DNA of 64,000 nucleotides, taken from NCBI GenBank assembly GCA_006212045.1, contig PZPK01000016.1:1-64000 (forward strand), given 5' to 3'. Of this stretch, positions 1,962-19,162 are shown one piece after another (the first letter of the stretch is position 1; every line of letters begins with the position of its first letter). The notes below the pieces were generated by a model. The model made no database searches and was not told the origin of the DNA. It saw nothing but the letters and a program-made list of their open reading frames with translations. The DNA is from Oleiphilus sp. Lineage in GTDB: Bacteria > Pseudomonadota > Gammaproteobacteria > Pseudomonadales > Oleiphilaceae. A program made the translations under genes and the position numbers.

Positions 1962-1969
1962 CGATAGCC

Positions 1970-2059
1970 TCAACCAAACGTCATATAGATGCTAACGGAT
2001 AACATAGAGCAACCAAATGCGATGCCACCACCTATAGACATTTCATTAAGCAATCCCAT
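1970..2059 (-). CDS. 29-residue hydrophobic micropeptide between holin and gpF
   Basis: A short open frame fills the holin-gpF gap. It starts with ATG overlapping the holin stop (TGATG at 2057-2061) and ends TGA at 1970, nine bases before the gpF start. The product begins MGLLNEMSIGGGIAFGCSML and is hydrophobic enough for one membrane span. Stop-start coupling on the upstream side and its position in a lysis module suggest it is translated and may assist or oppose the holin. No family is recognised; it could simply be a coupling leader for gpF. Confidence 0.45.
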   Translation of the reverse strand: MGLLNEMSIGGGIAFGCSMLSVSIYMTFG

Positions 2060-2586
2060 CACTTTTTAGTTCCCATCACGGCTGTCTTCATCTTGCTGCC
2101 CAGAGAACTGCCGAAGTGAAACGCTGTCACATCCTGGCGTTCTTTCAACAAGGCATTGATTATAAATCCCACCAACGTAGATACGGTCGAAAGTAGCGCC
2201 GGATCGGTCTTCAGGTAGTGTGTTGCAATCACGTTAACCAGGACAAGTACAAGTATCAGCGGCAAGTTGTATTTCATAATGTAGAAGGCTATTTTATCAC
2301 TTGCCTCGTTGTGAACCTTGTAGGTCTCGCGTGCATGTTGGCGATCTTCCAGAACCATTCGATCAAAAACGTGCTCGTTGTCCATGACCGCTTTCTGAAA
2401 TTCAAGGGCCGTATTCGGGTTCGTTTTAATGGCTTCCAGAGCATCGGTTGCACCTGGCTTTCCCGTTACATCTTTAGCGATATCAACTACCTTTTCGGCG
2501 ACATCTTCTGCTTTGTCTCCGCCAATCCACCCCGCAATTTTTGGAGCGAATTTGATCAGAGCTGATGCGATTGCTATGGCAGACAT
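2059..2586 (-). CDS. three-helix-type holin
   Basis: This 175-residue protein matches the 3TM holin family (also found in gene-transfer-agent release). It has an amphipathic N-terminus, a charged central part (DRMVLEDRQHARETYKVHNE) and two strong C-terminal membrane segments, YNLPLILVLVLVNVIATHYL and LLSTVSTLVGFIINALL. Holins permeabilise the inner membrane so that endolysin reaches the wall. AGGAG precedes the ATG at good spacing. Here the holin lies far from the amidase (7395-7895), separated by packaging genes, although both are in the same leftward late operon. Confidence 0.8.
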   Translation of the reverse strand: MSAIAIASALIKFAPKIAGWIGGDKAEDVAEKVVDIAKDVTGKPGATDALEAIKTNPNTALEFQKAVMDNEHVFDRMVLEDRQHARETYKVHNEASDKIAFYIMKYNLPLILVLVLVNVIATHYLKTDPALLSTVSTLVGFIINALLKERQDVTAFHFGSSLGSKMKTAVMGTKK

Positions 2587-2596
2587 GGTGAATCTC

Positions 2597-2920
2597 CTAT
2601 TTGCGTTTTAGCCATCCGACTAAATGAGTTATTGGCAGCAACAGCAAACAGGCTACCGGCACTAAAATGGAAAGCGCGGTCAGACCGAAATCGTTTCCAC
2701 GACGATAATGGCCATCACTTTCCATCGATTGCTTGCAATGACCTGGGCCGTCCAATGGATAGAACGTAAAGTCGATGACCGTTTCCATCGAGCGCCAGTA
2801 TCGATTGCGTTTAACTTTTGAGAAATAACCTGTTCGAGCAGAAACTGTCGCCCGGCTGTCGCCTCCAACCAGAGCATTTAAAAGGCGGCTAAGTGCCTGC
2901 ATGATGTTTCGTGCCCACAT
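2597..2920 (-). CDS. small membrane protein of the lysis/packaging operon
   Basis: This 107-residue protein starts at ATG 2920 (GAGGAG upstream), just after the portal stop. An earlier start at 2950 would overlap the portal gene and lacks a ribosome site. Most of the chain is polar (SARTGYFSKVKRNRYWRSME). The C-terminus has one membrane span, LSILVPVACLLLLPITHLV, and ends in KRK. The family is not recognised. The position between portal and holin fits a lysis accessory role such as a spanin-like or regulatory protein, but nothing in the sequence proves this. Confidence 0.6.
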   Translation of the reverse strand: MWARNIMQALSRLLNALVGGDSRATVSARTGYFSKVKRNRYWRSMETVIDFTFYPLDGPGHCKQSMESDGHYRRGNDFGLTALSILVPVACLLLLPITHLVGWLKRK

Positions 2921-2921
2921 G

Positions 2922-4454
2922 TCATTGCTCCTCTTCCATGCCCTGAGCAAATGCCAGGCGCATCACTTTTTCATTGATCTCGGCTAATTTGTTCTGGTCC
3001 ATCTTAAGTCCCAGTTTTTCGATATCTGAATAAAACTCCTTCAGCGTCTTCCCGGATGATTCGTACTCACGCAGCATCTGCTCGATCGGGTCAATTAGGT
3101 TTGATTCAATAACCTTGTCCGCTTCACGGATAGCGGTGCTGATCAAGCTTACTTGAGAACGCGGCTCGGAAAATTCATGTGACCTACCGCAGTGCGAACA
3201 CGCGGAAAATTGTTTCGGTTCTGGAGTAGCTGTGGAAACTGGCGCACTCTGAACAATCACCTCTTCATCGCCTTCGGCAATAGGGATATTCATTTCTTCA
3301 TGGAGCGCCTTTAACGGAACTCTGTTTGACAATCGTGCAACGATCTCATATTGCTCAGCCCGTTCGATCGTAGGGTCCTTGTCTTTGTAGAACTCAAAGA
3401 CTGGAGCCACAACATCCTCGCCAACGTTGTAGTAAGTGATCCAGCGAAACACTTGGTTAAGCGAGGCAGCCACAGCTTTACGATTCGCCGAACTGTTATC
3501 GCTCTGGCGTTCATAGTGCGTTTTACTAGCGGCATTGGATCCGACACCCTGATTCTCGGTTGCCAATGTCTGACTTGTGATCGCCTTGCTCATTTCACGA
3601 TTACACAAATGCACCATCGCTTCCTGAGCAAGCTCTCCACTATGGCTTGAGGTTAGCAATTCTACAGAGGCATCATCGGGAACCGCCGCGGCCCCATCTT
3701 GCAGCAGCTGAACCAATGCATCCAGCAAATCCTGCTGACCTTTGAGGTCGGTACCCGCGGGATATTTTCCGATTGGAAACGGTAGCCCGTAACGTTCACA
3801 AAATTGGTAGAAGAACTTGAAACCGCCTTTTTTAAACGTGTACGGCCAAAAGCAGGCACTAAGAATCGCCCGTCCATAAGGGTTAGTCTGACTTGGCATG
3901 TGACGCGAGAGCAAAAAATAAGGATCTTCTGTCGGCTCACCATTGGTTGGTTCCCGCTTGGTCAACAACCGCAGCGCATTGTCAGGACTAAAAAGAAAAC
4001 GACGATTCGGCCGATCCAGTAGCGCGGTTGGAAAAACGCCGTCAGGCGTATTGTCCCAAATAAGTTCGTGAACCCGAAAACCCGTTAATACTGCACTACC
4101 CATGTTCCAGATGACATCGGGCCACGTCATTCGGGGTGCGGGATCTTTGCTTAGCCATAGTTCGCAAAGATCCTTTGCCCGTTCTTCCTGGGGAGTATCC
4201 AGGCTATTTACACCTGGTTTAACACGGAATTTATGGGCGTTTAAACCGGCTTCGATCGAGCGTAATTCGCCCAGGACATGCGCGTCTGACATGATGGCAT
4301 CATATACTTCATCGGCTTTTCCCATGGCACGCAGAATCGGATCAGGGTTAGGAAGTACTTCCAGTCCCTGGTAAAAATAAGGGTCTGAATCACGTCCAGC
4401 TTTAGCGGTTGACATGATTTTTTTTGCCAGCTTTTGAAGGTCTTTACCTTCCAT
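2922..4454 (-). CDS. portal protein (Mu gp29-like, DUF935)
   Basis: The 510-residue product is the dodecameric portal through which DNA enters and leaves the head. Family features include the N-terminal YFYQGLEVLPNPDPILR block, the central WPDVIWNMGSAVLTGFRVHELIW block and the FCERYGLPFPIGKYP segment, with usual family length. A C-terminal CSHCGRSHEF motif could bind zinc. ATG 4454 overlaps the last 11 bases of the terminase gene, so the two are probably translationally coupled. An upstream start at 4496 is less likely because it runs 53 bases into the terminase gene. Confidence 0.9.
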   Translation of the reverse strand: MEGKDLQKLAKKIMSTAKAGRDSDPYFYQGLEVLPNPDPILRAMGKADEVYDAIMSDAHVLGELRSIEAGLNAHKFRVKPGVNSLDTPQEERAKDLCELWLSKDPAPRMTWPDVIWNMGSAVLTGFRVHELIWDNTPDGVFPTALLDRPNRRFLFSPDNALRLLTKREPTNGEPTEDPYFLLSRHMPSQTNPYGRAILSACFWPYTFKKGGFKFFYQFCERYGLPFPIGKYPAGTDLKGQQDLLDALVQLLQDGAAAVPDDASVELLTSSHSGELAQEAMVHLCNREMSKAITSQTLATENQGVGSNAASKTHYERQSDNSSANRKAVAASLNQVFRWITYYNVGEDVVAPVFEFYKDKDPTIERAEQYEIVARLSNRVPLKALHEEMNIPIAEGDEEVIVQSAPVSTATPEPKQFSACSHCGRSHEFSEPRSQVSLISTAIREADKVIESNLIDPIEQMLREYESSGKTLKEFYSDIEKLGLKMDQNKLAEINEKVMRLAFAQGMEEEQ

Positions 4455-6069
4455 TATCGTAACCTCGTAAATCGCGAGAACTTGCGCGACGCGCACTCAA
4501 AACACTGGGTAATCCACCCATCCTGCTAACTGCGACCATCCAGAGCATATGCAACGCGTCGGGCCCATCATCATGGTCCGCTTCCGGCCAGTGAAGGAGC
4601 TGCTCCAGTAGCACCGAATGATTCCGGTTAAATCGAATCAGTCCATTTGCCACATGAGGCTGTAGCGATTCGATGCGAAGATCTTTATCCGTGTTCGGTG
4701 TGATTCCACGTGCAGGTACCGGAACGCCTACGGCGGCCGATCGTTTCACCATTTCGTCTTTGAAGAACTCCTGGAACTGAATCGTTTCAACGCCCCAGAC
4801 CAAGCAGCCATACTCGCGCTGGAACTCGATTACATCGCTGATAATCATGTCAGGCACGCGCCGTTTTATCTTGGCTTCAACGACGTCCAGCAGCCCATGT
4901 TCGCGATCGAATCCACCCACTAGAATGGCGGACGGATCGCGGCTCCGATTGCGTTTACCCATCGACGGATCGCAGGAGCCGTAGAAAATCCACTTCCGAT
5001 AGGGCTGAACCCAATAGGTTAGGTTCTTGAATGGCGCATTTTCATCGTTTGTAGGATCGTTCTGATATTCGCAATCGAACGCATGGTGGTCATCGGCACG
5101 CTCTTTCATTAAGCGCAGTAGCGGGCGTGTTTTCGGCCAACTCAGGACGGCACCTTTGTCCATGGCTTCTTTGTTCTGCAGATAGAAGCGATCGGATTCT
5201 TCCTCACCTTCGTTAATGAGGATTTCTTCCCAGGCTTCCCAAAGATCCATGTTGTCCGGCCAACGCATAATGGCCTTGAATACACGGCCATTCCAGACAG
5301 GGTTTTTGAGGGTACGATTCAGTACCGAGTCATAGTGCAGAATCGTTCCTATATAGAAAACATCCATCGTGCCGTCAGGCGGCCCCAACTTGAGCACGGC
5401 TTTCTTGAGCCAATTCTCAGTCTTGTTGCGCTGTTCAATCTTGCGGACATTTTCATCGTTCTCGATGTCATCCAACACGACCATATCTGGACGGTGTGGC
5501 CCATGTCGCCAGCCACGTACCTTTTTGCCGGAGCCCGCGACCTGAACCTTGATTTTGTTCGCAGTAATGATGACACCTGTTTGCCAAACACGGCCTGCAC
5601 CACAGGCTTCCGGAAAGTCCATTTTCAGACGCGGATTTGATTCCAACTCGACCTTGATGGCTTCGAGCATCATGGCCGCCTGATCAAAGGAATCCATCAA
5701 GATAACGGGGAATTTTTTTAGCTCGGCTACGATCACAAATAAATTGCCAAGCTGGGTGAAAAGTGTCGATTTTGCCTCGCCCCTGGGAGCCGCTCTGACT
5801 TCTTTGTACCCCTTGGTTTTATCCATTACCTTAACCGGGAATTCGTCAAAGACATCGGTATGGAAAAGAGACTCTTCTTCCTTAATGTAGTGCGGGAAAT
5901 AGGTCCGGCAGAAGAAGCGATAATCGCCGTTTAAGACACGTCCCCGACGTGTTTTACGCTCGGCCGGTTCTGAGTCGAATGCCAAGCAATCCGTTTCGAT
6001 CAGTTGCCGCTGTTCTTCCGCAAATGCAGACAGCTCCTTTAGAAATTTGGTCTCGGTATACTTTCCCAC
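4444..6069 (-). CDS. terminase large subunit (Mu gp28-like)
   Basis: This 541-residue packaging motor cuts phage-host DNA and pumps it through the portal. The ATPase half shows a Walker A-like APRGEAKSTLFTQL at about 98-111 and Walker B MVVLDDIEN near 195-203. The nuclease half begins near FYGSCDPSMGKRNRSRDPSA, which contains the first acidic residue of the RNase-H-like fold, and ends with DDGPDALHML. The start is GTG at 6069, seven bases after the small-terminase stop. It lies between the small terminase and portal genes, as in Mu. Confidence 0.92.
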   Translation of the reverse strand: MGKYTETKFLKELSAFAEEQRQLIETDCLAFDSEPAERKTRRGRVLNGDYRFFCRTYFPHYIKEEESLFHTDVFDEFPVKVMDKTKGYKEVRAAPRGEAKSTLFTQLGNLFVIVAELKKFPVILMDSFDQAAMMLEAIKVELESNPRLKMDFPEACGAGRVWQTGVIITANKIKVQVAGSGKKVRGWRHGPHRPDMVVLDDIENDENVRKIEQRNKTENWLKKAVLKLGPPDGTMDVFYIGTILHYDSVLNRTLKNPVWNGRVFKAIMRWPDNMDLWEAWEEILINEGEEESDRFYLQNKEAMDKGAVLSWPKTRPLLRLMKERADDHHAFDCEYQNDPTNDENAPFKNLTYWVQPYRKWIFYGSCDPSMGKRNRSRDPSAILVGGFDREHGLLDVVEAKIKRRVPDMIISDVIEFQREYGCLVWGVETIQFQEFFKDEMVKRSAAVGVPVPARGITPNTDKDLRIESLQPHVANGLIRFNRNHSVLLEQLLHWPEADHDDGPDALHMLWMVAVSRMGGLPSVLSARRASSRDLRGYDNGR

Positions 6070-6075
6070 CAGCGT

Positions 6076-6573
6076 CTACCCGTAAACCCGGCTAAGTTCC
6101 TGACCAAATGGCTCCAGCATCTCTGCATAGGATTCAGTCAAATGTGGGTAATGGTTGCGAATGTAATCCGCCAGTAGCTTAAGAACCTCCATTGCAACGG
6201 CCAGCGCACTCAATTTTGGATTGGAGTCTCCCGCGGCTTTCACTGTTTTTGAATAGCTGTCACTTAACTGAGCGATCAGTTGCGCTTTTTGAAGTGGATC
6301 TATGTCCTTCGAATCTTTTACCTGGTCAATGGTTGATTTGAACATCAACACGAAATCTTCGATCACTGCCGCAGTCAACGCTTTAACGCCGCTTTTAGAT
6401 ACATTATGCGCGGCACGTACGTTATCCCAATCATCGCCCTCTTGTTCGGCTTTGCGTTTCCAGTTTCGCGCTGTTTCATATTTGACGGAAACTGCCACAG
6501 ACGAAGCCTTTAGCGTCATTCCCTTAATATAGTTCGCCCGTAACTTTCGTTTTGTCTCAGCACTATAGGCCAT
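6076..6573 (-). CDS. terminase small subunit (Mu gp27-like, DUF1804)
   Basis: The 165-residue protein has an N-terminal helix-turn-helix (AETKRKLRANYIKGMTLKASSVAVSVKYETARNWKRKA), a helical middle and a C-terminal segment matching the DUF1804 family found next to gp28-type terminases. It should recognise the packaging start site near one prophage end and recruit the large subunit. It precedes the large terminase by six bases in the leftward late operon. Confidence 0.85.
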   Translation of the reverse strand: MAYSAETKRKLRANYIKGMTLKASSVAVSVKYETARNWKRKAEQEGDDWDNVRAAHNVSKSGVKALTAAVIEDFVLMFKSTIDQVKDSKDIDPLQKAQLIAQLSDSYSKTVKAAGDSNPKLSALAVAMEVLKLLADYIRNHYPHLTESYAEMLEPFGQELSRVYG

Positions 6574-6585
6574 TGTGTAAGCCTC

Positions 6586-6930
6586 TTATTTTCCGACCGA
6601 CTGTTTCAACAGTTCGACTGCAACAGCCGCCAGCGTGCCAATCGCTCCGCCACCCGCTAGAGCTTTCTTCCCATCATGCTTTCGTGCATCCAACTCCAAC
6701 TGCTGATTGTTCAGTCGGTCCTCAACTGACTCAAAACGTTTATCATTTGCGCTCCGGTGATCTTCAATGCGCCGATTGATAGCTTCTGTCTGACGATCTA
6801 CCGAGCGCGCATGATCATCGATTCGGGTATTGATAGCCTGAGTGGAGCTTTGGATTACGGTCACCATCGTCTCGACTAGGGCTTTGACCTCACCGATTCG
6901 CTGTTCAAGTTTGGCATAATCGTCAGACAT
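6586..6930 (-). CDS. coiled-coil protein with C-terminal membrane segment
   Basis: The 114-residue product starts at ATG 6930, preceded by AAGGAAG; an upstream ATG at 6945 has no good ribosome site. A long coiled coil contains related blocks INTRIDDHARSVDRQTEA and INRRIEDHRSANDKRFES. It is followed by a glycine/alanine-rich membrane segment (GGGAIGTLAAVAVELL). The shape resembles haemolysin XhlA-like or inner-membrane spanin-like phage proteins. The neighbours are amidase and terminase genes. The precise function is unknown. Confidence 0.65.
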   Translation of the reverse strand: MSDDYAKLEQRIGEVKALVETMVTVIQSSTQAINTRIDDHARSVDRQTEAINRRIEDHRSANDKRFESVEDRLNNQQLELDARKHDGKKALAGGGAIGTLAAVAVELLKQSVGK

Positions 6931-6951
6931 ATGACTTCCTTCCATTGATCG

Positions 6952-7392
6952 TTATTTAGCCGCCTTGAACGACAACGCACAGGTTTCCTTGAAAGTCACC
7001 GTTTCAAAAACCAGGTCATGTGTTGGTCGGTCTTGATCGTTTACCAGATCAACCAATGGTGGCAGGGCTTTGAAAGAGACCCCGGTTTTGACATAGTGGT
7101 CAAATTCCGGTCCCAAAATCTCCTTTAGACGTGCGGCATCGGCGATCACGACTTCCTCTTTGGGCACAACGGGAACCGTCCCCACTTCCGGAATATGCAG
7201 GGTGTATTTCTCTTTTTCGCCGAACTCTCCTTTGATCAGGCTTTTTATTTCATCCTGTCGTTTTTTGAGAGCCTTAATTTTCAAGTCGATTTCGATACCT
7301 TCAGAAGCCAGATTCTTGAATTTGGCGGGGAGTTTCGCATCCTCTTTAGCTTCGTCTTCGAACTCGATGAATGCAGGTTTGGAACGTGCCAT
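6952..7392 (-). CDS. conserved phage protein of unknown function
   Basis: The 146-residue soluble protein has an N-terminal charged helix (LKIKALKKRQDEIKSLIKGE) followed by a mixed alpha/beta part ending FKETCALSFKAAK. There is no signal peptide, membrane span or motif that I recognise. It sits three bases downstream of the amidase stop, so it is in the late operon. It may be a head or packaging accessory protein, but this is inference from position only. Confidence 0.6.
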   Translation of the reverse strand: MARSKPAFIEFEDEAKEDAKLPAKFKNLASEGIEIDLKIKALKKRQDEIKSLIKGEFGEKEKYTLHIPEVGTVPVVPKEEVVIADAARLKEILGPEFDHYVKTGVSFKALPPLVDLVNDQDRPTHDLVFETVTFKETCALSFKAAK

Positions 7393-7394
7393 GG

Positions 7395-7895
7395 TTAGAC
7401 CTCCAGTAAATGGTCATGTAGTGAGTTAAAGTCATTGTCCATCCAGGCTCGCACATCGAATCCAGGACAGGTTTTGTGTTCATTGACGGCCCGGTGGCCA
7501 ATGATTTTTGAAAGCTTTGGCAGGCTGTCATGCAGCGTGAGAATCAAACTTTTTGCGGTGGTCCACTGAGCTTCGGTAAAGGCGTCCGTACCGATCAGGC
7601 AAATTCCAACAGAGGAACTGTTGAATTTTCGAGCATGCGCCCCAACTTCTTCCAAAGAGCGGCCGCTCTCTAATACCCCGTCTGTTCTTATCACAAAGTG
7701 ATAGCCGACATGCCGTAGGTGGGGCTGATGTTTCTTGATGAAGATTTGTTCTCGTTGAAACGGCCTTAGCCCACGATTTATCCGGTCTGGCCCATGCCAA
7801 TAGTCCACGTCTTCGATCGTATGAAATCGACCGTTAGGCGTGGCTGCACAATGAAAAATTGCGGTTGTAATCTGAGACATTGAACGTGGCATCAT
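7395..7895 (-). CDS. N-acetylmuramoyl-L-alanine amidase endolysin
   Basis: This 166-residue protein matches the PGRP/amidase_2 zinc hydrolase fold (T7 lysozyme type), which cuts the amide bond between muramic acid and the peptide stem. The zinc ligands are visible: His near residue 15 in FHCAAT, His in GYHFVI is a fold landmark, and the C-terminal GHRAVNEHKTCPGFD supplies the second His and the Cys. There is no signal peptide, so it depends on the holin. ATG 7895 follows AGGTG. It is the first gene of the leftward late operon, about 55 bases downstream of the shared late-promoter motif. Confidence 0.92.
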   Translation of the reverse strand: MMPRSMSQITTAIFHCAATPNGRFHTIEDVDYWHGPDRINRGLRPFQREQIFIKKHQPHLRHVGYHFVIRTDGVLESGRSLEEVGAHARKFNSSSVGICLIGTDAFTEAQWTTAKSLILTLHDSLPKLSKIIGHRAVNEHKTCPGFDVRAWMDNDFNSLHDHLLEV

Positions 7896-7933
7896 GGCAG
7901 CACCTACTTTGTTGGTGATGCCATTGTCGAGTA

Positions 7934-7973
7934 ACGCTAGCGTTCAAAACACGTGAAATGTTTCGGGGGTAAG
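7934..7973 (-). promoter_or_regulatory. late promoter for the leftward lysis/packaging operon
   Basis: Minus-strand bases 7973-7949 carry the element with core CCCCCGAAACATTTCACGTG, also present at 19115-19139 before the rightward late operon (23 of 25 positions match). It contains the near-palindrome GAAACATTTC. A possible -10 (TAGCGT) lies 15 bases downstream. There is no good -35, which is expected for a Mor/C-activated promoter. Confidence 0.75.
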
Positions 7974-8024
7974 AATCGCTTTAACGGCCTATGGCCGAAC
8001 CACTTTAGCTATGGAATTTTTGAT

Positions 8025-8939
8025 ATGCCGAACAAAACATATAAGTTTGATTTCTTTGAAGCGTTGACTCAAAACTCGAACGCCAATGCAACACTAAGGA
8101 CCACCACAGACATGCTGCAAAGTATGAAAGAGGCATTTGATAGCGGAAACCCACCAGCGAAGGAAATTGGTGGCTAGACCCATGAGCTGAGAAGTATTGA
8201 GGAAACTGAGTTTGGATATAGAGGTATCATTGGGAAGCATCGTAAATCGAACTTACCCCATGCGGCAGCAGTTGGAGGTGAAGAACGAGAGCTTGAAATA
8301 AGAGAAGATGAGAATCTTTTGGAGAAAGCCTGCTTCCATTACTACGCAGACTACAGCTTGATAATACTACAGCGAAATATTACCTGCATAGGATACAAAA
8401 ATATGGCTAGGTTCCTGAGCGATTCAGGCTACGTTACCAGCTTGAGCCCGGTAATTGAGCCAACTGATTTGCAATGGATGATCAACAACAAAATCCATCT
8501 ACGTCATGCCGAAATCGCAATAGCAAGACCCAGAAACCCCGAATTGTTTCAAAGAATGGAGCACGACTTCAACAACTCAATCGTAACTACACTTACTGGC
8601 ACTGGAACTGCTATGCTCAAAATTGAGATTCGAGGAGATGCTAAATCGACAGACCCTGAATGTAGGTATCTTGCGCAAAACGTGAAACGAGCTTTTCGGG
8701 AGATGCAGGCGAATTTTGACGTTCGGAAGTGTAAACTATTGCTCGAACATGAAGACTCTCACATTACACACCCGGTCGACTTGGTTTTGGATCGATTGAT
8801 CTTTCAGAAGGATATCGCGATCGAAACACGCTACCCGCCATTATTTGAGATATGGGAGGCCCTTACAGAAGCCCGGACTGAAAAAGAAGAGGAACTTCGG
8901 CGCTACTTTGGAAGTCTTGAAAGGATGCGGCTTACTTAG
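8025..8939 (+). pseudogene. accessory gene of a plus-strand cassette, interrupted by an in-frame TAG
   Basis: One reading frame runs from ATG 8025 to TAG 8937-8939 (304 codons) except for an amber codon at 8175-8177 (codon 51). The first part is MPNKTYKFDFFEALTQNSNA... and ends EIGG. After the TAG the frame continues without a start codon as THELRSIEETEFGYRGIIGKH and has the composition of real protein throughout. From memory the whole resembles the uncharacterised DUF6731 family, with moderate confidence. It is a soluble protein with no catalytic motif that I can name. It faces opposite to its neighbours and is followed nine bases later by a membrane-protein gene. It could be recently broken, expressed by TAG readthrough, or a sequencing error. 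Confidence 0.7.
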
Positions 8940-8947
8940 CTTTAATT

Positions 8948-9415
8948 ATGAATAAGAATACAGTGATTCACTTCTCATCAATCGCATTCGTATCGGCTAT
9001 GATTTGTTGGTTCATATGGCCTACGGTATCCGAATTCGAATCTAAGTCGATTCAACCGATTGCATCTGCAGTTTCAACTATCACAGGTATTCTGTTGGGC
9101 TTCATTATGGCGTCAATGTCCATCATTGGCGCAGCGCCCAGCAACACCCTTATTCGAAATACCAGTTTGACTGGTTACCTACCTCAACTTGTTGAGAGGC
9201 TTCACTATACTATGGGTGCACTTCTAGTCGTATGCCTCATATTTCTGGCCGTTTTGTTTGTACCGGAATCAAAGACCCTAAGATTAAGCGAAGCAGGAGC
9301 CGAGTATCGCTTGGGATCTGTGTTCGTTTTGGTCGGAATGTTTGTATTGATAATTGCTGTCTATCTGTTCTTGTGGACCTGGACAAAGTTCAAAGATTTT
9401 GCGAAGCACATGTAA
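8948..9415 (+). CDS. four-helix membrane protein of the accessory cassette
   Basis: The 155-residue protein has four predicted membrane segments at about 8-26, 37-58, 86-106 and 120-145, and a short charged tail (TKFKDFAKHM). No family is recognised. It starts nine bases after the preceding gene and must share its transcript. Small cytosolic-plus-membrane gene pairs at such prophage positions often act in superinfection exclusion or defence, but here that is inference. A rightward terminator hairpin lies at 9724-9749. Confidence 0.65.
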   Translation: MNKNTVIHFSSIAFVSAMICWFIWPTVSEFESKSIQPIASAVSTITGILLGFIMASMSIIGAAPSNTLIRNTSLTGYLPQLVERLHYTMGALLVVCLIFLAVLFVPESKTLRLSEAGAEYRLGSVFVLVGMFVLIIAVYLFLWTWTKFKDFAKHM

Positions 9416-9451
9416 CGGATGTTTGTAATGGAGGATTAACAATTATTGAAT

Positions 9452-9679
9452 TCAGTGTGAGATAGCAGCCCTGCGCCTAAATACCGTAGTGTCTTTGTGA
9501 AAGTCGCAGATCACTGTTTTTGTTGCTATCAGCGACCAGGCGGTGTAACCGAGCTTCACCGCGACTTGTTCTATTTTCTCGCCCGTCCATGCGGCATAAA
9601 TTCTGATATCCTCATTGAGTTCAGCGCGAGCGAGTAGCCTAGTATAGGCTGCATCTTCTCGCTGTTTTTGTGATGACAT
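9452..9679 (-). CDS. small hypothetical phage protein
   Basis: The 75-residue protein starts at ATG 9679 with CAGGAGG at good spacing. A helical, charged N-terminus (SSQKQREDAAYTRLLARAEL) is followed by EDIRIYAAWTGEKIEQVAVKLGYTAWSLIATKTV, which resembles a small helix-turn-helix. It is the last gene of the leftward early/middle block and is not recognised. A DNA-binding role is possible. Confidence 0.55.
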   Translation of the reverse strand: MSSQKQREDAAYTRLLARAELNEDIRIYAAWTGEKIEQVAVKLGYTAWSLIATKTVICDFHKDTTVFRRRAAISH

Positions 9680-9723
9680 TTTGGCCTCCTGACCAAGTAG
9701 TAATTACGACAGCAAAGCGTTAT

Positions 9724-9749
9724 AGCCCGCCGAAGCGGGCTTTGATTTT
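9724..9749 (+). terminator. rho-independent-type terminator of the accessory cassette
   Basis: Perfect 7-bp stem AGCCCGC/GCGGGCT with a CGAA tetraloop (9724-9741), followed on the plus strand by TTTGATTTT. It would stop rightward transcripts from 8025-9415. The hairpin could also weaken leftward transcription, but the minus side lacks a T tract. Confidence 0.65.
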
Positions 9750-9972
9750 AGAACGTAGTGGGTTGAGCAACGCCACGGATTGCCCACATAAAACCCTGCT
9801 GCAAATTTGTTTTACCGATTGCCACACATCGCTTGTCTGTCTTTTCATTTGCCTCCAGTTTGGCTATGTATTCATGGCATTGTTCTGCGAGAGCCTTTCC
9901 TTCATTCATTAAATCGATTTCGTCCTGGCTCAGATCGCGGTAGCCTGTAATTTTTTCGTGCTGGTCTTTCAT
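9748..9972 (-). CDS. Acb2/Tad1-like anti-CBASS cyclic-nucleotide sponge
   Basis: The 74-residue helical protein shows the conserved pattern of the Acb2 family: a GYRDLSQDEIDLMNEGK N-terminal block and a C-terminal AIGKTNLQQGFMWAIRGVAQP block ending in PTTF. In Pseudomonas transposable phages such as PaMx33, Acb2 forms hexamers that trap cyclic di- and trinucleotides made by CBASS cyclases, blocking the host abortive response. Length and both motifs fit. ATG 9972 has AGAGGTG upstream. Lying in the early/middle block of a transposable phage matches its known context. Assignment is from memory of the family, without a search. Confidence 0.75.
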   Translation of the reverse strand: MKDQHEKITGYRDLSQDEIDLMNEGKALAEQCHEYIAKLEANEKTDKRCVAIGKTNLQQGFMWAIRGVAQPTTF

Positions 9973-9990
9973 GATTTACACCTCTTAGGG

Positions 9991-10054
9991 TAGTTGGTTG
10001 GGTCGCGAACGTGCGACGAATTGATCTACCAACTAAGCCCCAATGAAGGGGCTT
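9991..10054 (-). other. structured, tRNA-like leader upstream of the Acb2-like gene
   Basis: On the minus strand, hairpin AAGCCCC/GGGGCTT (10054-10035) is followed by TAGTTGG (10035-10029) pairing with CCAACTA (9997-9991). Inside that is GTCGC/GCGAC (10017-10002). GGGGCTTAGTTGGTAGA resembles a tRNA acceptor and D arm, and the inner hairpin resembles a T arm, but there is no anticodon arm. It may be a degraded tRNA or a structured 5' leader. Confidence 0.35.
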
Positions 10055-10080
10055 ATTGATTGGTTTATTCCGGAGTACTA

Positions 10081-10227
10081 CTATCCAGATTTTCGCTTAC
10101 AGCTGTCCCCGGAGTCGGATGGCCAGGCATCTATCGGGACCGTCTGCTGATTGCACCGGCTGTCTCCGAGGCACGCAACCATCGTGAGAGCGATGACAAC
10201 CAAAACCGCTTTGAAGATCGTGTTCAT
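10081..10227 (-). CDS. 48-residue putative small lipoprotein
   Basis: ATG 10227 overlaps the stop of the preceding gene (ATGA), with CAGGAG upstream. The product begins MNTIFKAVLVVIALTMVAC, a short signal with a lipobox-like MVAC, followed by about 29 polar residues with two more cysteines. It would be exported and possibly lipid-anchored. Size and type recall outer-membrane spanins (Rz1-like) or superinfection-exclusion lipoproteins, but proline content is low. Stop-start coupling supports translation. Confidence 0.55.
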   Translation of the reverse strand: MNTIFKAVLVVIALTMVACLGDSRCNQQTVPIDAWPSDSGDSCKRKSG

Positions 10228-10715
10228 GACTTTTTCTCCTGCAGTCTTTTCACCCCGCAACTTGCCAGAACTGACTTGGCATCGGCCGGTATGTCTTTCT
10301 TCATCTCGGCCGCTTTGTGTTGCTCGCCTTTCACTTCACCTGGTGGCTTCTGATAGCCTGTTTGTTTGACTGGTGACCCGAGGGTCTCCAGCACCTGCTT
10401 GAGGTAGTTGTGATTGGCCAGCGGCTGACCTTTGCTTTGCGCGGCACGTTGCTTTTGAATGTTGTCGACCGTCCGTTCCAGGGCGGCCGACAGAGGCCCT
10501 GACAACTCAAGAACTTCTTTTGCCAGCTTCAGGGCGCGGGTGTTGCTTAAGTCTTGCTTAGCGGGCCTGAAAAGGCCCAGATACTGGATCAGCGGAACCG
10601 ACACATCACGTGGCTGTTTGGCCAGCAAAGCCAACAGCTGAGAGCTGGCTTCGTCCTGAACAATTGCCTGCAGATCAATACGGTGATGACAGCACGGACA
10701 GCGACCCAGTTGCAT
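10224..10715 (-). CDS. phage early protein with N-terminal zinc-ribbon-like motif
   Basis: The 163-residue protein begins MQLGRCPCCHHRIDLQAIVQ, a CxxCHH knuckle that could bind zinc. It continues with a helical region containing LIQYLGLFRPAKQDLSNTRALKLAKEVL and a Lys/Gln-rich tail. Similar proteins occur in early regions of Mu-like phages, but their role is not known to me. A nucleic-acid-binding role in replication is plausible. The stop overlaps the start of the lipoprotein-like gene, and its start overlaps the stop of the gene at 10715-10930. Confidence 0.6.
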   Translation of the reverse strand: MQLGRCPCCHHRIDLQAIVQDEASSQLLALLAKQPRDVSVPLIQYLGLFRPAKQDLSNTRALKLAKEVLELSGPLSAALERTVDNIQKQRAAQSKGQPLANHNYLKQVLETLGSPVKQTGYQKPPGEVKGEQHKAAEMKKDIPADAKSVLASCGVKRLQEKKS

Positions 10716-10930
10716 TACTCGGCTCCTGCGTGACTGATGCGAAAGCGTTGGTAGTAGTTATCGTCAACACGGTCTGTTGACGCCAGCTGCTTGATCACAC
10801 CATTGCGCCCAAAGAAGTCATTGATCTGTTCATGTACATTGCGCCGATCTTCAATCCGGATCATGTTCGTGTTCATGGAAACGGATGCAGGACCAGGGGT
10901 GTAGTTTCGTTTTGTGGATTGGTTAAGCAT
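10715..10930 (-). CDS. small hypothetical early protein
   Basis: The 71-residue product MLNQSTKRNYTPGPASVSMN... has no recognisable motif. TAGGAA precedes the ATG at 10930. It is packed between the Mor-like activator and the zinc-knuckle protein with a one-base overlap, so it is part of the leftward early transcript. Internal methionines (for example residue 19) could be the real start. Confidence 0.5.
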   Translation of the reverse strand: MLNQSTKRNYTPGPASVSMNTNMIRIEDRRNVHEQINDFFGRNGVIKQLASTDRVDDNYYQRFRISHAGAE

Positions 10931-10953
10931 TGTTCTATTCCTATGTGAGCCAG

Positions 10954-11361
10954 TTAAAACATCGTCAGCTGATCGATGTCAGACGAGTTGATCCCCAATT
11001 CAGCGCGAATCTGCTGCACACGCCTCTGGGTATAACCCGTATTCAGGGCGATATCTCGCGACGGCACCCGTGCGGCGGTCATCTCTGCGATGAGCCTGTA
11101 TTTGATTTGCCGGACGGCCGCATCGAGCTTTGGAAACGAAAGTTCCTCGCTACGATAGGCATCTACCAACGCCTCAAATGCTTCCATACCAATGATCTTT
11201 ACAACATCGTGATCTGCATGTGCCTCATTTGGCACATACAAACGCACACCGTTGTATGCCTCTCCCAATTTGAGTGTGGCTGGCAACCCAATCACAGATG
11301 CCAGCTCTCGGTGCAGCTCAGGCAAAATATCAGGGTTGATTTTTTTCGGATCAATCGACAT
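10954..11361 (-). CDS. mor: Mor/C-family middle-late transcription activator
   Basis: The 135-residue protein matches the Mor transcription activator family (Mu Mor and C). The N-terminal dimerisation part contains LPELHRELASVIGLPATLKLGEA and GVRLYVPN, and the C-terminal helix-turn-helix SRDIALNTGYTQRRVQQIRAEL ends near residue 124. These dimers bind dyad sites over the -35 region and recruit sigma-70 polymerase to promoters without a good -35. It is the only such gene seen in the prophage, so it is the natural candidate to activate both motif-bearing late promoters (7949-7973 and 19115-19139). Confidence 0.88.
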   Translation of the reverse strand: MSIDPKKINPDILPELHRELASVIGLPATLKLGEAYNGVRLYVPNEAHADHDVVKIIGMEAFEALVDAYRSEELSFPKLDAAVRQIKYRLIAEMTAARVPSRDIALNTGYTQRRVQQIRAELGINSSDIDQLTMF

Positions 11362-11375
11362 GGTTTAAACCGTGT

Positions 11376-11885
11376 TTATTGGTCAATTAAATTGGTTTTA
11401 TAGCTATCCAGTCCGCGCTGTTGGTGCGCTTTTTTAAGAGTCTCTATCGCCGTATTCAATTGCGCAGATGAGATCCACTCAAAGCGTTCCAGGCCAGGGA
11501 CATGATTCATGCAGTAGCGTTCCATTGCTTTGCGCGATCGATCGTTGACCACCCCTGCATTCGCCAATGAATTCCATAGCGCCATCAACTTCCCGATACG
11601 TGGATTGCGCCAGCCGGGAGACGAAGCCTTGCCGTGTTTTTTGGGAACGAACCTAGCCTTAAATCCCAGGCTACGGCATTGATCGAGTGCCGCCTCAAGC
11701 TGTTCAATTGTCATCGTCGTTGCGCTGAACTTGCCGTTTTTCTCTGACGCACCGTTCATGAACAAAATGTGCCTGTAATCGTCATCGGTAAAACCTGGGC
11801 GCAGCTCCTTCAGGTGCCGGTTGGCCACGGCCAGAAGCTTGTAGTAGCGGTTACGATCATCTGTGTGTTTCAGCGCCGCGCTCAT
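11376..11885 (-). CDS. gemA: GemA-like regulatory protein (Mu gp16/DUF1018 family)
   Basis: The 169-residue protein contains the DUF1018 core DRNRYYKLLAVANRHLKELRPGFTDDDYRHILFM and a C-terminal helical part with HVPGLERFEW and LNTAIETLKK. In Mu, GemA affects host gene expression and DNA topology. It lies between the HD-like protein and Mor, the usual early-region position, and overlaps the upstream gene by four bases. Confidence 0.82.
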   Translation of the reverse strand: MSAALKHTDDRNRYYKLLAVANRHLKELRPGFTDDDYRHILFMNGASEKNGKFSATTMTIEQLEAALDQCRSLGFKARFVPKKHGKASSPGWRNPRIGKLMALWNSLANAGVVNDRSRKAMERYCMNHVPGLERFEWISSAQLNTAIETLKKAHQQRGLDSYKTNLIDQ

Positions 11886-12490
11886 TGATCACGCTCCCAG
11901 GTGGCCACGGCCGCCGCGAGAATCTCGAAAGTCTGCATAAAGTCACAGAACACCTGATAGCTGGTATTGTGATCCCACTCGATCGCATCCGCGTCGGCCG
12001 GGATCTCTGTCAAGATGTGGGAATAGCTTCGGCTTGGAGAGAAGCGCTTGGCCTCCATTGCCTGGGCAACCAATGTGGTTTTATCCAGCAAGTCGCGAAC
12101 ACCTTCTGCTGGCTTCTCGATACCCAGACTTTCATACACGATGCTCTGCACTTGGCTTTCCAGGAAAGAAATCTGCTCGCGCAGATAGCTTAGGTGCCGA
12201 ACCGGCGAAGGATAGCTTCCGGAGTACACCTCATGAGCGCGATACAACATTGCTTGCATAGCGGTATAAGGGTTGCCGGTATTCATCAGAATATAACGCT
12301 GAACCCATAGGGCATGGTGGGCCAGCGTATACGGGTTATGTATGAGCTGGTGGCCACCATTGACCGGCGTTCGACTCATGAGTAGAGCGATTTCCTCAAC
12401 GCTGGTCTTGAACTCGTCAATGTGGGTGTAATCCAGCATCTGACCCGAAATTGATTCGGTAATCATTGGTTGTGAGATTGTAGCGTTCAT
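11882..12490 (-). CDS. HD-domain-like early protein with altered metal motif
   Basis: The 202-residue product starts at ATG 12490 (GGGAG upstream); the frame is open further up but overlaps MuB. The segment YTLAHHALWVQRYIL...AMLYRAHEVYSGSYPSPVRHL lines up with phage HD-type phosphohydrolases, whose normal motif reads like ALLHDAHEAYxGDIPSPVK. Here the paired His-Asp is replaced by Tyr-Arg. The fold is probably kept, but the metal site appears lost, so it may be a non-catalytic nucleotide-binding protein. Context is between MuB and GemA in the early transcript. Confidence 0.55.
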   Translation of the reverse strand: MNATISQPMITESISGQMLDYTHIDEFKTSVEEIALLMSRTPVNGGHQLIHNPYTLAHHALWVQRYILMNTGNPYTAMQAMLYRAHEVYSGSYPSPVRHLSYLREQISFLESQVQSIVYESLGIEKPAEGVRDLLDKTTLVAQAMEAKRFSPSRSYSHILTEIPADADAIEWDHNTSYQVFCDFMQTFEILAAAVATWERDQ

Positions 12491-12506
12491 GGTTTGGCTC
12501 CCGAGG

Positions 12507-13559
12507 TTATTTACGTTTTGGGCTAAGGTTGAGGGCCTTCTTGGCGACGGCATACACCACGTCGGCACTCACGGTATTGTGTTGTGGAATGCCATATCGC
12601 TTGATGTTTGGAATCAAGCCATTCACCAGCATTCGCATCGATCCATCGCACAAGGACCAAAAGGCATTGAAAATGTCCTCGCGTAGATCGCCGTCTTCGT
12701 CGAAGATCTCCGGGCGATCATCAAAGCTCACTGACACAATCGCACGTGCATCATCCTTGGTAATGTGAAAGATGGGCTCAGGGAAAAACGGTGCTCGCGA
12801 GCGAATCTGATCGAACTGACCGCCTTCGGGTTTGATCAATGAGTAGAGTTGTGATGTACCGGCCAGCACTACGCCAATATTGCCTAGATCCATCAGTCGC
12901 CGAATGGTCTCTAAAGACTTTGGATTTACCGTCTCGGCTTCATCCAGAATCAACAAACCGTTTTCGATCTTGGCAACATGGGAAACGACGGTTTTGAATT
13001 TTCGATGGACCGGCACATAGTTGGTAAATTGCTTGATTCCCAATTTCTCGACCAATTCATCAACCAGGCAGCCAGTGTTCATGCCAGGGTACGATTCCAC
13101 CATCCAGGTGTTTGCGTGTTCCTCTGCATACTCTTTTAGCGCACGGGTTTTCCCCGTGCCCACGTTGGCCGCTACTACCGAGAACATGGCGCTCACGCGG
13201 GCTTGCTTGCAGGCCGTATTGACAATGCGAGATACGCTGGTTTCAACAAACGGTGTGTATCCCGATTCGGTTTTGCGCTCGTCAATATTGCGAATGGTCT
13301 GCATTAGTTTTGTCAGGTTCGTCGTGACATGACCGGTGTAATTGCCGTTAAGCAGCATATTGACCAGCGCCGGGCTCAACGATGCAGCCGTGGAGAGATA
13401 CCTGCCTGCTCTTTTGCGGTTATTCAGCCATTCGATAATCTCTTTTATTGCCGCCTTGTCCTCAGCCGAATACTTGCTGGTCCACTCAGTAGGTACCGTG
13501 TGCGGCTTGAAGCGAGAGGCACTGGGGTCTACTGTTACGGCGTCTGTTTTTGCTGGCAT
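12507..13559 (-). CDS. MuB-like transposition target-selection ATPase
   Basis: The 350-residue AAA+ protein captures target DNA for the transposase and gives target immunity. An N-terminal Cro/cI-like helix-turn-helix (GRYLSTAASLSPALVNMLLNG, about 52-72) precedes the ATPase with Walker A ANVGTGKTRAL (about 131-141) and Walker B LLILDEAE (about 202-209), then an arginine-rich QIRSRAPF segment. ATG 13559 with CAGGAG is preferred over an ATG at 13595, which overlaps MuA. It directly follows the transposase gene, as in all Mu-like phages. Confidence 0.92.
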   Translation of the reverse strand: MPAKTDAVTVDPSASRFKPHTVPTEWTSKYSAEDKAAIKEIIEWLNNRKRAGRYLSTAASLSPALVNMLLNGNYTGHVTTNLTKLMQTIRNIDERKTESGYTPFVETSVSRIVNTACKQARVSAMFSVVAANVGTGKTRALKEYAEEHANTWMVESYPGMNTGCLVDELVEKLGIKQFTNYVPVHRKFKTVVSHVAKIENGLLILDEAETVNPKSLETIRRLMDLGNIGVVLAGTSQLYSLIKPEGGQFDQIRSRAPFFPEPIFHITKDDARAIVSVSFDDRPEIFDEDGDLREDIFNAFWSLCDGSMRMLVNGLIPNIKRYGIPQHNTVSADVVYAVAKKALNLSPKRK

Positions 13560-13581
13560 TTGTTGCTCCTGTTGTGTGCTG

Positions 13582-15243
13582 TTAATCAAACTCATTTAGG
13601 TCGATGTCCAGATCGATATCGACATCTGGAGCCTTCGGCTCTGGCTCCGGCAAGCTGCTCTGCAATTCATGCAGCTCTTCGTACTGGTGGTTGTTTTCGA
13701 CTAAAGCTCCAGAGCGGAGCTTCACTTCGTGAATCTTGGCTTCGAGACGCTTGACTGCGGCATCTCTGGATTTTTTGATTTGTTCATCTAGACGAGACTG
13801 AGGAATAAAGACTTTCTTGCAATCCAACTCGGCATCGCATATCAGGCGGCCACTTTCATCTCGTACAGTAATGACGGTGTCGTCTTCGAAGGAGTACTCG
13901 CATACAACCGAGCGTGAGTTGTGCTGTATTAGAATCGGGTGGTAGTACTTGCGATTGTGAAGCGTTACGCATGAACGCTGTACGACTCTACTCTCGCGCG
14001 CTTTCAAGACATCCTCTGGGTCTATATGCAGTGGCGTGCGCTCCAGTGTTGACCAAAGCTCATGCGGAGTCGTGTCAGGGAACTCGGGGTGTGGTCTGTT
14101 GTGGTAGTTCTCAAGCCACTTTGTAAAGCCATCGCACCACTGTCCAAGTGTGGGTGCTTTTTTTCGTTTGGCTTTTACTTCTCGGTACCAGACTCTGGCC
14201 ACCTCTTTTGAATGACCTTCGCCGCAGAAGGCCTCGCCAAACGAGACGCCATAATCACGTTCCATTGTTCTGAAAAAACGTTCGACCTGGCCCTTGGCTT
14301 TTGCGTTACCAGGTATGGCGAATATGGTTTGGATGTTGAAGCGATTGTAAAAACCAATCGCCTCATCGCTCATGATTTTTGACTTGTACCCACACCCGTT
14401 GTCGACATACAAGATTGCGGGTACATGGTCATGATTTAGAAGCGACCTTCCGATTGCTTGTATCGTTGCGACACCTGACTCAGCGCTGCTTAGGTGCCAC
14501 CCTACAATGAAGCGTGACTTCACATCCATGAATACAGTCAGCTCCGCACGCCAGGTACCACTGCCGCTGTTCGGGTGCTCCAGGTAAACGTCGATGGTGT
14601 GGCCGTCTGCCTGGTAGATCGCGCCTACAGGAACATTCTCACAAGTACGTGAAATGAAATTCTTCTGGCTGTTGTTGTAGAGGTGTTTGCCAATGCGTGC
14701 TGGCGAGTTCTTACCCAAGGTTTCAGGCAGAGACTTAAGGTACTTGGTTACGCGAGAGTCTGTCGCACTCTCAAAATCGTGATACTCACGTAAACGCCTG
14801 GCAACCCATTGATAGCTCACCTGGTTGGGGTTTTGAAACAGCTGCACCGCAAGTGCTTCCCAGCCGTAGTCTTTACGTACACGGCCCGTGTACTTATCTA
14901 GAAGGCCGCTTTTGCCTTCATCCTGGTACGCCTTTAACCAGCCATGAATGGTTGAACGCCCAGGCACTTTCCCTGCTCTGCCAAGAGACTCAGCTAGCGC
15001 CATGTAAGAAGGGGTACACTGTTTGCTTTCAATCTTTTTTAGAAGGTTGCGGATGGCTACGTTCGCAGACCCGCCTTTGGACACGTGATCCAAAACAGGT
15101 TTGAGAAACTGCTCGCGACTGCTCGCAACCTCTCTCTGTTTGAACGTGGCCGCTTGCCACTGCTCAGATGTCGTTTTAGCTACGGGTGCGTTGTGATCCA
15201 TTACTTCCTTCACCAACGCATTAATCGGTACTACGGCTGCCAT
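13582..15243 (-). CDS. MuA-like DDE transposase
   Basis: The 553-residue protein pairs the two phage ends and performs cleavage and strand transfer. N-terminal helix-turn-helix segments (GRSTIHGWLKAY near 95-106) lead into the RNase-H-like rve core. Catalytic residues are D213 in YQADGHTID, D281 in LYVDNGCGYKS and E321 in KGQVERFF. The core is followed by the beta-barrel domain and an acidic tail (DVDIDLDIDLNEFD), the region that in MuA contacts MuB and ClpX. All catalytic residues are present. It is transcribed leftward from the early promoter near 16.67 kb. Confidence 0.95.
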   Translation of the reverse strand: MAAVVPINALVKEVMDHNAPVAKTTSEQWQAATFKQREVASSREQFLKPVLDHVSKGGSANVAIRNLLKKIESKQCTPSYMALAESLGRAGKVPGRSTIHGWLKAYQDEGKSGLLDKYTGRVRKDYGWEALAVQLFQNPNQVSYQWVARRLREYHDFESATDSRVTKYLKSLPETLGKNSPARIGKHLYNNSQKNFISRTCENVPVGAIYQADGHTIDVYLEHPNSGSGTWRAELTVFMDVKSRFIVGWHLSSAESGVATIQAIGRSLLNHDHVPAILYVDNGCGYKSKIMSDEAIGFYNRFNIQTIFAIPGNAKAKGQVERFFRTMERDYGVSFGEAFCGEGHSKEVARVWYREVKAKRKKAPTLGQWCDGFTKWLENYHNRPHPEFPDTTPHELWSTLERTPLHIDPEDVLKARESRVVQRSCVTLHNRKYYHPILIQHNSRSVVCEYSFEDDTVITVRDESGRLICDAELDCKKVFIPQSRLDEQIKKSRDAAVKRLEAKIHEVKLRSGALVENNHQYEELHELQSSLPEPEPKAPDVDIDLDIDLNEFD

Positions 15244-15263
15244 GCAAAGCTCCGCTTTTCAAA

Positions 15264-16235
15264 TTAAGATTCTGTTTTCTTAGGTCGACCAGGCTTACGT
15301 GGCCGGTTGCGCGCTCTTTCTTCTTCACGTATGCGTTTCTGCTGCTCATGCTCTTCAGTCATGTACTCACGGTCAGAGATGGACTGCATGAGTTCTTGTT
15401 CATTGAAGGTGTAATCAATGGAGAGGGGCTCTACGTAGTCGCCTAGCTGAGCATGCAGTTTGTTGACCGTTAGCGTTGCGCGCGCCTGAATTGCTTTGCA
15501 GTGAATATCTACGTTGGTAATGGCAACCGATAGAGAGTTGTCCTGACCTGTTTGAGCGATCTCATTGAGCTGGTCAATCATTTGCTCAAACTCATCAATT
15601 CTCAGATTGATTTCGTTAGCGAGGGCATTGGCCTCATAACGAATGTCATTCACATAGTCGGGATACTTGGCGTTCAGTTGTCGGCGACCTGCCAAGGTAT
15701 CGAGGAGGGCTCGGTGTTCTAACTGCTTGGTTTCTTTATCGAGTTCCAGATCCGCTTTTTCGGCTTCCAACTTGCGAATTCGGTCACGCATTTCTTGATA
15801 AGAAAGGGCTTGTAGGTCAGGGCCGTTTTCAGAGTCACTGTCGGCTAGCAGCTCTTCGATGATTTCTACGTCTAGCTTCGCCAATGAGACGAGTTTCTTT
15901 TGTCCCAGCCCTGTTAGCTTGGGTCTCTTTGATTCTGGGACTGAGAGTAGTAGTCTTGCGACCTGCATTTTCTCTCGCACAGTTCGCATCTTGAATCCGG
16001 CGCTTTTGAGCCAGGTTTCAAATTCGCCGTGGGGCAGTTTTTCTTTAAGCGCCAAGAAACAAAATCCTTGCTGAGCTTGTGCGCGTACAAGATGATTTTG
16101 TTGCTCAAGCAGAAGGTCCTTAAGTTCCTCAATGTCTTCAGGTATGTCGACTGATATTGGAATGTTTGAATTTACTAGGTTGGCTAATTCCTTTTCCAGA
16201 TCGGCCTCGGGGGCCGTTATCACGATGTCTGTCAT
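15264..16235 (-). CDS. early DNA-binding protein with AT-hook tail
   Basis: The 323-residue protein has an N-terminal region with LPHGEFETWLKSAGFKMRTV, similar to DUF3102-like phage proteins. A long coiled coil follows (about 165-190), then a helical middle and a C-terminal RPRKPGRPKK, a canonical AT-hook (GRP core). It probably binds AT-rich DNA, perhaps assisting transpososome formation or acting as a nucleoid-like factor. It sits directly upstream of the transposase gene in the early transcript. Confidence 0.65.
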   Translation of the reverse strand: MTDIVITAPEADLEKELANLVNSNIPISVDIPEDIEELKDLLLEQQNHLVRAQAQQGFCFLALKEKLPHGEFETWLKSAGFKMRTVREKMQVARLLLSVPESKRPKLTGLGQKKLVSLAKLDVEIIEELLADSDSENGPDLQALSYQEMRDRIRKLEAEKADLELDKETKQLEHRALLDTLAGRRQLNAKYPDYVNDIRYEANALANEINLRIDEFEQMIDQLNEIAQTGQDNSLSVAITNVDIHCKAIQARATLTVNKLHAQLGDYVEPLSIDYTFNEQELMQSISDREYMTEEHEQQKRIREEERARNRPRKPGRPKKTES

Positions 16236-16309
16236 ATTTGACGTCTCCTATTTTAAAACGGCGCTGGCGCCGTTTTGCCATGTGTGCGTATTGATTTTTC
16301 TTGGTTTGG

Positions 16310-16609
16310 TTAGCTTGCTTTTCTAAGCTCTGATTCCGCAGCGCCTTTTGCTGGGAGTCGGCCTCTCGTGCTGTTGCCGCGGAGCTTTTTGTACTTGGCT
16401 GGACATGTCAGATATTTCCCAGGCCAGAGTTTTTCGGTGGGAATGTCGATAATTGAAGAAATGGCATAAGCGACTGGATGGCTCACTTTGGTGCCTCGTA
16501 TTACTTCCGTTACAACGGATTTACTTACCGACTCTTGTTCGGCGACTTTCGTCAAGGTCCAACCTCTTTTTTGCAGCTCACAAACAATTTCCGCCCAATG
16601 TAAAAGCAT
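16310..16609 (-). CDS. ner: Ner/Nlp-family early regulator
   Basis: The 100-residue protein starts at ATG 16609 after AGAGGA; an open frame reaches farther up but crosses the promoter region. The winged/HTH pattern WAEIVCELQKRGWTLTKVAEQESVSKSVVTEVI...PTEKLWPGKY matches the Ner family, which in Mu lowers early transcription after lytic onset. The basic tail KKLRGNSTRGRLPAKGA is longer than in Mu Ner. It is the first gene of the leftward early operon and faces the repressor gene across 134 bases of operator DNA. Confidence 0.82.
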   Translation of the reverse strand: MLLHWAEIVCELQKRGWTLTKVAEQESVSKSVVTEVIRGTKVSHPVAYAISSIIDIPTEKLWPGKYLTCPAKYKKLRGNSTRGRLPAKGAAESELRKAS

Positions 16610-16653
16610 TCTTTTTTGATCCTCTCTATGCGATACTGACACGATAAATCTAA

Positions 16654-19156: not shown

Positions 19157-19162
19157 CGGATA

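What the first reader, a model, noticed from the sequence alone, without database searches (positions are those of the whole stretch)
8025..9415. Plus-strand two-gene accessory cassette between lysis and early modules
A soluble protein of about 300 residues (DUF6731-like from memory) and a four-helix membrane protein form a pair transcribed against the flanking genes, with their own terminator at 9724-9749. Prophage cassettes with this form often protect the lysogen from other phages. I know of no described function for this pair, so it is the best candidate here for an undescribed system.
Basis: inference. Interest (0 to 1): 0.7.

Follow-up and report, generated by a model that had tools for sequence, protein, structure and literature searches.

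The report
RexAB-like prophage defence pair, partly broken
Two adjacent genes in a Mu-like prophage form a widespread, always-paired cassette (a DNA-binding-type sensor and a four-helix membrane protein) that resembles phage lambda's RexA/RexB 'suicide' defence, although in this bacterium the sensor gene carries a premature stop.

Summary
Gene A (8025-8939 +, Pfam DUF6731, in-frame TAG at 8175-8177) and gene B (8948-9415 +, four predicted transmembrane helices) form a low-GC pair inserted against the flanking lysis and early genes of a Mu-like prophage. The pair is a real mobile unit. B is preceded by a DUF6731 gene in every fetched locus that reaches far enough to show it. Genomes found through DUF6731 alone all carry a membrane partner. 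A and B distances agree (Mantel r 0.95, 0 of 10,000 permutations). It sits behind phage repressors (five loci), between Q and lysis genes in E. coli prophages, beside an integrase in a tailless Vibrio phage, and once between Septu and PDC-S52 defence genes. The predicted structure of A matches lambda RexA best (Z 11.5; next 7.5). Profiles of A and B match lambda RexA and RexB weakly, but above shuffled controls. Best reading: a divergent RexAB-type abortive-infection cassette, with A as infection sensor/activator and B as membrane effector. Neither gene matches the Pfam RexA or RexB models, and I found no paper on DUF6731, so I call it a new variant of a known kind. This copy is probably inactive. 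No function was tested.

The parts
8025..8939 (+). Gene A: DUF6731 protein, RexA/RdgC-like fold, proposed infection sensor/activator; interrupted by TAG
8175..8177 (+). In-frame TAG (codon 51 of gene A); first start codon after it is TTG 8319, giving at most a 206-aa C-terminal product without the N-terminal strands
8948..9415 (+). Gene B: 155-aa four-helix membrane protein, proposed RexB-like effector
9724..9741 (+). Rho-independent-terminator-like hairpin followed by T-rich tail, plausible end of the cassette transcript
7896..8024 (+). Divergent intergenic region between amidase (-) and gene A (+); presumed promoter region, no sigma-70 consensus found there
7395..7895 (-). Flank: N-acetylmuramoyl-L-alanine amidase (endolysin)
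9452..9679 (-). Flank: 75-aa ORF, no convincing family
9748..9972 (-). Flank: Acb2/Tad1 hairpin-domain protein (family known as anti-CBASS/anti-Thoeris sponge)

Best explanation
The pair is a divergent RexAB-type abortive-infection (phage-exclusion) cassette carried as an accessory gene pair by temperate phages. Protein A (DUF6731) has the RexA/RdgC fold, probably dimerises and binds DNA, and is switched by an infecting phage (replication or recombination intermediates, or a phage protein). Activated A then opens or otherwise triggers protein B, a small four-helix inner-membrane protein that compromises the membrane and stops growth, so the infection aborts. Shown here: pairing, order, shared history, predicted fold of A, helix count of B, remote profile similarity to lambda RexA/RexB, accessory position, and interruption of A in this copy. 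Inferred: DNA binding, the trigger, A-to-B activation, membrane damage, and anti-phage activity.
For: Fold: AlphaFold2 model of A (pLDDT 79.6, pTM 0.66) has lambda RexA 8twq as best match, Z 11.5, rmsd 3.8, 147 residues, ahead of Iml3, CENP-N and RdgC at 6-7.5, the same relatives that PMC11077077 names for RexA. Sequence: hhalign A vs lambda-type RexA scores 29.1 against a shuffled maximum of 23.5 (0 of 200), B vs RexB 27.4 against 21.8 (0 of 200); with more divergent members A 0 of 100, B 2 of 100. A close relative of B hits the PADLOC RexB model at E 0.007. Anatomy: A always precedes B; A-first genome searches give a membrane partner in all genuine hits; Mantel r 0.95. Repressor-A-B order, as in lambda cI-rexA-rexB, in L007, L024, L025, L084, L100. 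Defence island in L027. Literature: P. putida RexAB (PMC12894663), Sbash (PMC6426596) and CarolAnn (PMC6426606) are tested pairs of the same anatomy.
Against: No functional test of any DUF6731 pair was found (no paper names DUF6731). Foldseek's own PDB list does not show RexA in its top 50; the match rests on the second aligner. The A model is of moderate confidence and was built with a placeholder at the stop. Neither protein reaches the Pfam RexA or RexB model. The profile scores are weak in absolute terms (probability 6-31%). The window copy of A is interrupted, so this copy may do nothing.
Confidence: 0.74

Rival explanations
1. [quoted passage not shown]
For: Repressor-A-B order in several phages; PMC11077077 reports that RexA biases the lambda switch.
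Against: In the window, in lambdoid E. coli prophages and in the tailless Vibrio phage the pair is not next to the repressor; it also occurs next to host housekeeping genes (L126, L127) and in a defence island. The constant B partner is not explained.
Confidence: 0.1
2. Toxin-antitoxin pair: B is a membrane toxin and A neutralises it.
For: Two-gene operon with a membrane protein; in the Butters system the roles of the two partners are reversed (described in PMC12894663).
Against: Broken A with intact B occurs in the window, L017, L058, L088 and E. coli NDM2 (IS2 in A); an antitoxin loss beside an intact toxin should be lethal. A has a predicted RexA/RdgC-type fold, not an antitoxin fold. Caveat: few cases, and partial A may be made.
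Confidence: 0.05
3. Superinfection exclusion at the membrane: B alone blocks DNA entry and A is a regulator.
For: Small prophage membrane proteins often act this way (established knowledge); B stays intact where A is broken.
Against: Near-perfect pairing and shared history of A and B, and A's RexA-type fold, are not expected for a lone entry blocker.
Confidence: 0.07
4. Lysis-module accessory (holin or antiholin type) given its place beside lysis genes.
For: Next to the amidase in the window and to holin/lysozyme genes in E. coli prophages.
Against: Transcribed against the lysis genes, absent from several relatives, and found far from lysis genes elsewhere.
Confidence: 0.04

Closest known systems
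Lambda RexA/RexB exclusion system
   Same: Soluble ~280-310 aa protein followed at once by a ~145-155 aa four-helix membrane protein; RexA-type fold of A; repressor-A-B order in several relatives; weak profile similarity of both partners
   Different: No hit to Pfam RexA PF15969 or RexB PF15968; about 12% identity over the structural alignment; in the window it stands alone against lysis genes, not in the immunity operon
P. putida RexABpp (PP_5643/PP_5644)
   Same: Prophage pair, DNA-binding RexA-like protein plus four-helix membrane effector, both needed for defence (PMC12894663)
   Different: Sequence not available to me, so it is unknown whether PP_5643 is itself a DUF6731 protein; RexBpp is longer (residue Y181 is reported) than B (155 aa)
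Sbash gp30/gp31 and CarolAnn gp44/gp43
   Same: Same two-gene anatomy and proposed mechanism; BFVD search with the B model returns an Sbash membrane protein of 165 aa, the length of gp31 (prob 0.96)
   Different: No detectable profile similarity to A or B; the soluble proteins are about 370 aa
RdgC / CENP-L,N / Iml3-Chl4 fold
   Same: Shared two-domain DNA-binding fold, Z 6-7.5
   Different: Not paired with a membrane protein; roles in recombination or kinetochore

Membership tests
Pfam DUF6731 (PF20505) | Score above the curated cut-off | tested here: met
   35.4 bits vs 27 on the post-stop part; 39.1 bits whole gene
Pfam RexA (PF15969) | Score above the curated cut-off of the RexA model | tested here: not met
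   Gene A returns only DUF6731 at E up to 1, while lambda RexA scores 326.8 bits
Pfam RexB (PF15968) | Score above the curated cut-off of the RexB model | tested here: not met
   Gene B returns only a sub-threshold DUF998 hit; relative L024 reaches PADLOC RexB at E 0.007
RexAB-type exclusion system (functional class) | RexA/RdgC-type two-domain fold in the soluble partner | tested here: met
   Predicted model: 8twq Z 11.5, best of 997 chains, over model 6-298
RexAB-type exclusion system (functional class) | Adjacent small four-helix membrane partner, soluble gene first | tested here: met
RexAB-type exclusion system (functional class) | Carried by temperate phages, often co-oriented behind the repressor | tested here: met
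   Relatives L007, L024, L025, L084, L100; prophage-borne but not behind the repressor in the window itself
RexAB-type exclusion system (functional class) | Soluble partner binds DNA non-specifically as a dimer | not testable with these tools
   Needs purified protein
RexAB-type exclusion system (functional class) | Both genes needed to block other phages, with membrane damage | not testable with these tools
   Needs phage challenge
PADLOC-DB 2.0.0 defence models | Hit to a described defence protein | tested here: not met
   No model for A at E up to 1; B only 'Effector 2TM' at E 0.51

The most novel reading that the evidence does not exclude
DUF6731 plus its four-helix partner is a large, so far unnamed branch of RexAB-type immunity across the phylum. 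It moves between lambdoid, Mu-like and tailless phages and chromosomal sites including defence islands, with its own triggers and possibly a membrane effect other than depolarisation.
Probability: 0.45. Interest if true: 0.66.

Novelty: new variant of a known kind. Interest (0 to 1): 0.52.

Why it matters
PMC12894663 counts only five described RexAB-like systems, and says the way lambda RexAB is triggered by T4 rII is still unknown after 70 years. If the DUF6731 pair is RexAB-type, dozens of natural, divergent pairs become available, including ones in ordinary E. coli prophages (84 of 5426 complete genomes if the 73 and 11 found with two probes do not overlap). Comparing their triggers and membrane effects would make the old question directly testable, and it would give a function to DUF6731.

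Tried and rejected
Sequence-only search of solved structures with A profiles found nothing meaningful. hhalign of A against Sbash/CarolAnn/Sejanus RexA-like proteins, and B against their membrane partners, was at noise level; lambda RexA against those proteins was also at noise, so this does not separate the hypotheses. Foldseek on the PDB listed CENP-L and RdgC, not RexA, in its top rows. RexA Pfam search in 294 genomes of the order found nothing, and no control rang. No plasmid in PLSDB carries a relative of A at the tblastn limit used. One genome-contig query failed because the alignment was too diverse; the second gave a single Pseudomonas locus. One genome-scan hit, L022, is a low-complexity false match. 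A bias toward broken A over broken B (5 vs 0, one both) is not significant given A's larger size.

Full report
What is there. The window is the first 64 kb of one contig of a 4.43 Mb draft genome. It carries a Mu-like prophage: transposase, MuB-like, GemA, a Mor-like late activator, amidase, terminase, portal and minor head genes on the minus strand (transposase and MuB read from the translations). Between the amidase (7395-7895 -) and the early genes lie two plus-strand genes. Gene A (8025-8939) is a DUF6731 protein (Pfam E 1.1e-8) with one in-frame TAG at codon 51. Gene B (8948-9415) starts 8 bases later and encodes 155 residues with four hydrophobic helices. The cassette's GC is 43.7% against 48.8-49.8% for its flanks, lower than any same-size stretch of the rest of the module. 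Distant relatives of the phage have the Mor-like gene directly followed by the amidase (L116, L117), so the stretch is accessory. A terminator-like hairpin at 9724-9741 is sound but lies beyond a 75-codon antisense ORF.

Is the pair real? Yes. Direct phage hits led to E. coli phages cdtI and vB_EcoS-733R5, a tailless Vibrio phage and Pseudomonas phage AUS531phi; in all of them a DUF6731-like gene is followed at once by a small membrane-protein gene. A scan of viral contigs with the B alignment gave 75 loci; where the contig reaches far enough, B is preceded by a same-strand A, mostly within 30 bases (L088 by a broken A). The A-first scan of viral contigs gave 13 loci, all with B. Whole-genome searches that used only A gave ten genuine places (L020, L021, L098-L100, L126-L130), each with a small membrane protein directly downstream; L022 is a low-complexity false hit. 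Distances among A proteins and among B proteins agree with Mantel r 0.95 in 28 pairs, against a permuted maximum of 0.54. The B partners of a few remote loci were taken by position, so that number leans slightly on the pairing itself.

Where does it live? (i) Repressor-A-B order in the Mu-like contigs L024 and L025, in the AUS531phi type (L007), L084 and L100; the repressors carry S24 peptidase and, in four of the five, HTH domains. (ii) Between holin/lysozyme/methylase and antiterminator Q, against the late operon, in lambdoid E. coli prophages. (iii) Next to an integrase in a Vinavirales phage and, from its translation, in L035. (iv) In L027 between a Septu PtuA/PtuB pair (E 4e-166, 2e-76) and the candidate defence protein PDC-S52 (E 4e-79). 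(v) Beside apparent host housekeeping genes in L126 and L127 (read from the translations). In RefSeq E. coli it is found in 11 and 73 of 5426 complete genomes with two probes.

What is it? The AlphaFold2 model of A, with the stop read as a placeholder residue and 26 sequences, has lambda RexA (8twq) as the best structural match with Z 11.5, followed by Iml3, CENP-N/Chl4 and RdgC at 6-7.5. PMC11077077 names RdgC, IML3 and CHL4 as the structural relatives of RexA. Foldseek's own list shows CENP-L and RdgC. In the viral library the top hits of A and of B come from the same virus, ctylc9 (TM 0.74 and 0.60), an independent sign of pairing; the B search also returns an Sbash membrane protein of 165 aa, the length of gp31. 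Profile comparisons with lambda-type RexA and RexB are weak, but beat all 200 shuffled versions each; with a wider family A again beats all, and B beats 98 of 100 under a stricter block shuffle. For scale, lambda RexA against its published Sbash counterpart is at noise by this test.

How does it likely work? By analogy with lambda, Sbash, CarolAnn and P. putida RexAB (PMC6426596, PMC6426606, PMC12894663): A senses infection, probably through DNA, and triggers B in the membrane, so growth stops and the infection fails. In P. putida, overproduced RexA stops growth only if RexB is present, with leaky membranes but no measured depolarisation (PMC12894663). Broken A beside intact B occurs in the window, in L017, L058 and L088 and in E. 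coli NDM2, where IS2 lies in A. That fits A as activator and speaks against A as antitoxin, though the numbers are small.

State of this copy. The TAG leaves at most a 206-residue C-terminal product from TTG 8319, without the N-terminal strands of the fold. The rest of the frame is open, so the lesion is recent or a sequencing error. Intact relatives exist. I expect this copy to be inactive.

Known or new? DUF6731 appears in no paper of the library and has no PADLOC model. The kind of system, RexAB-type exclusion, is known. The Pfam RexA and RexB tests are not met, so I do not file the genes in those families; I say the pair works like RexAB and is probably a remote relative.

Noticed in passing
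window 9748-9972 (-): Acb2/Tad1 hairpin-domain protein (PF24729 E 2.8e-19), a family known for sponging the signals of CBASS and Thoeris, next to the proposed defence pair.
   Followed up: no
window 744-16873 (-) and 19163-44000 (+): Early, lysis, terminase, portal and minor-head genes are on the minus strand while protease and tail genes run on the plus strand, an order inverted relative to a usual Mu-like phage; no inverted repeats of 25 bases or more in 1-20000. Inversion, second prophage or assembly artefact.
   Followed up: partly
L027 1821-6232: DUF6731/membrane pair lies between a Septu PtuA/PtuB pair and PDC-S52.
   Followed up: yes
L124 3682-6050 (E. coli NDM2): IS2 disrupts the DUF6731 gene while the membrane gene stays intact.
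   Followed up: partly
L026 2442-3470: A protein with a weak SIR2 match (E 1.6e-4, below cut-off) lies upstream of the pair, and a 461-aa protein without a PADLOC hit lies downstream; possible further defence genes.
   Followed up: no
L005 1389-2896: The same cassette occurs in a tailless Vinavirales Vibrio phage right after its integrase, suggesting transfer between unrelated virus realms.
   Followed up: partly
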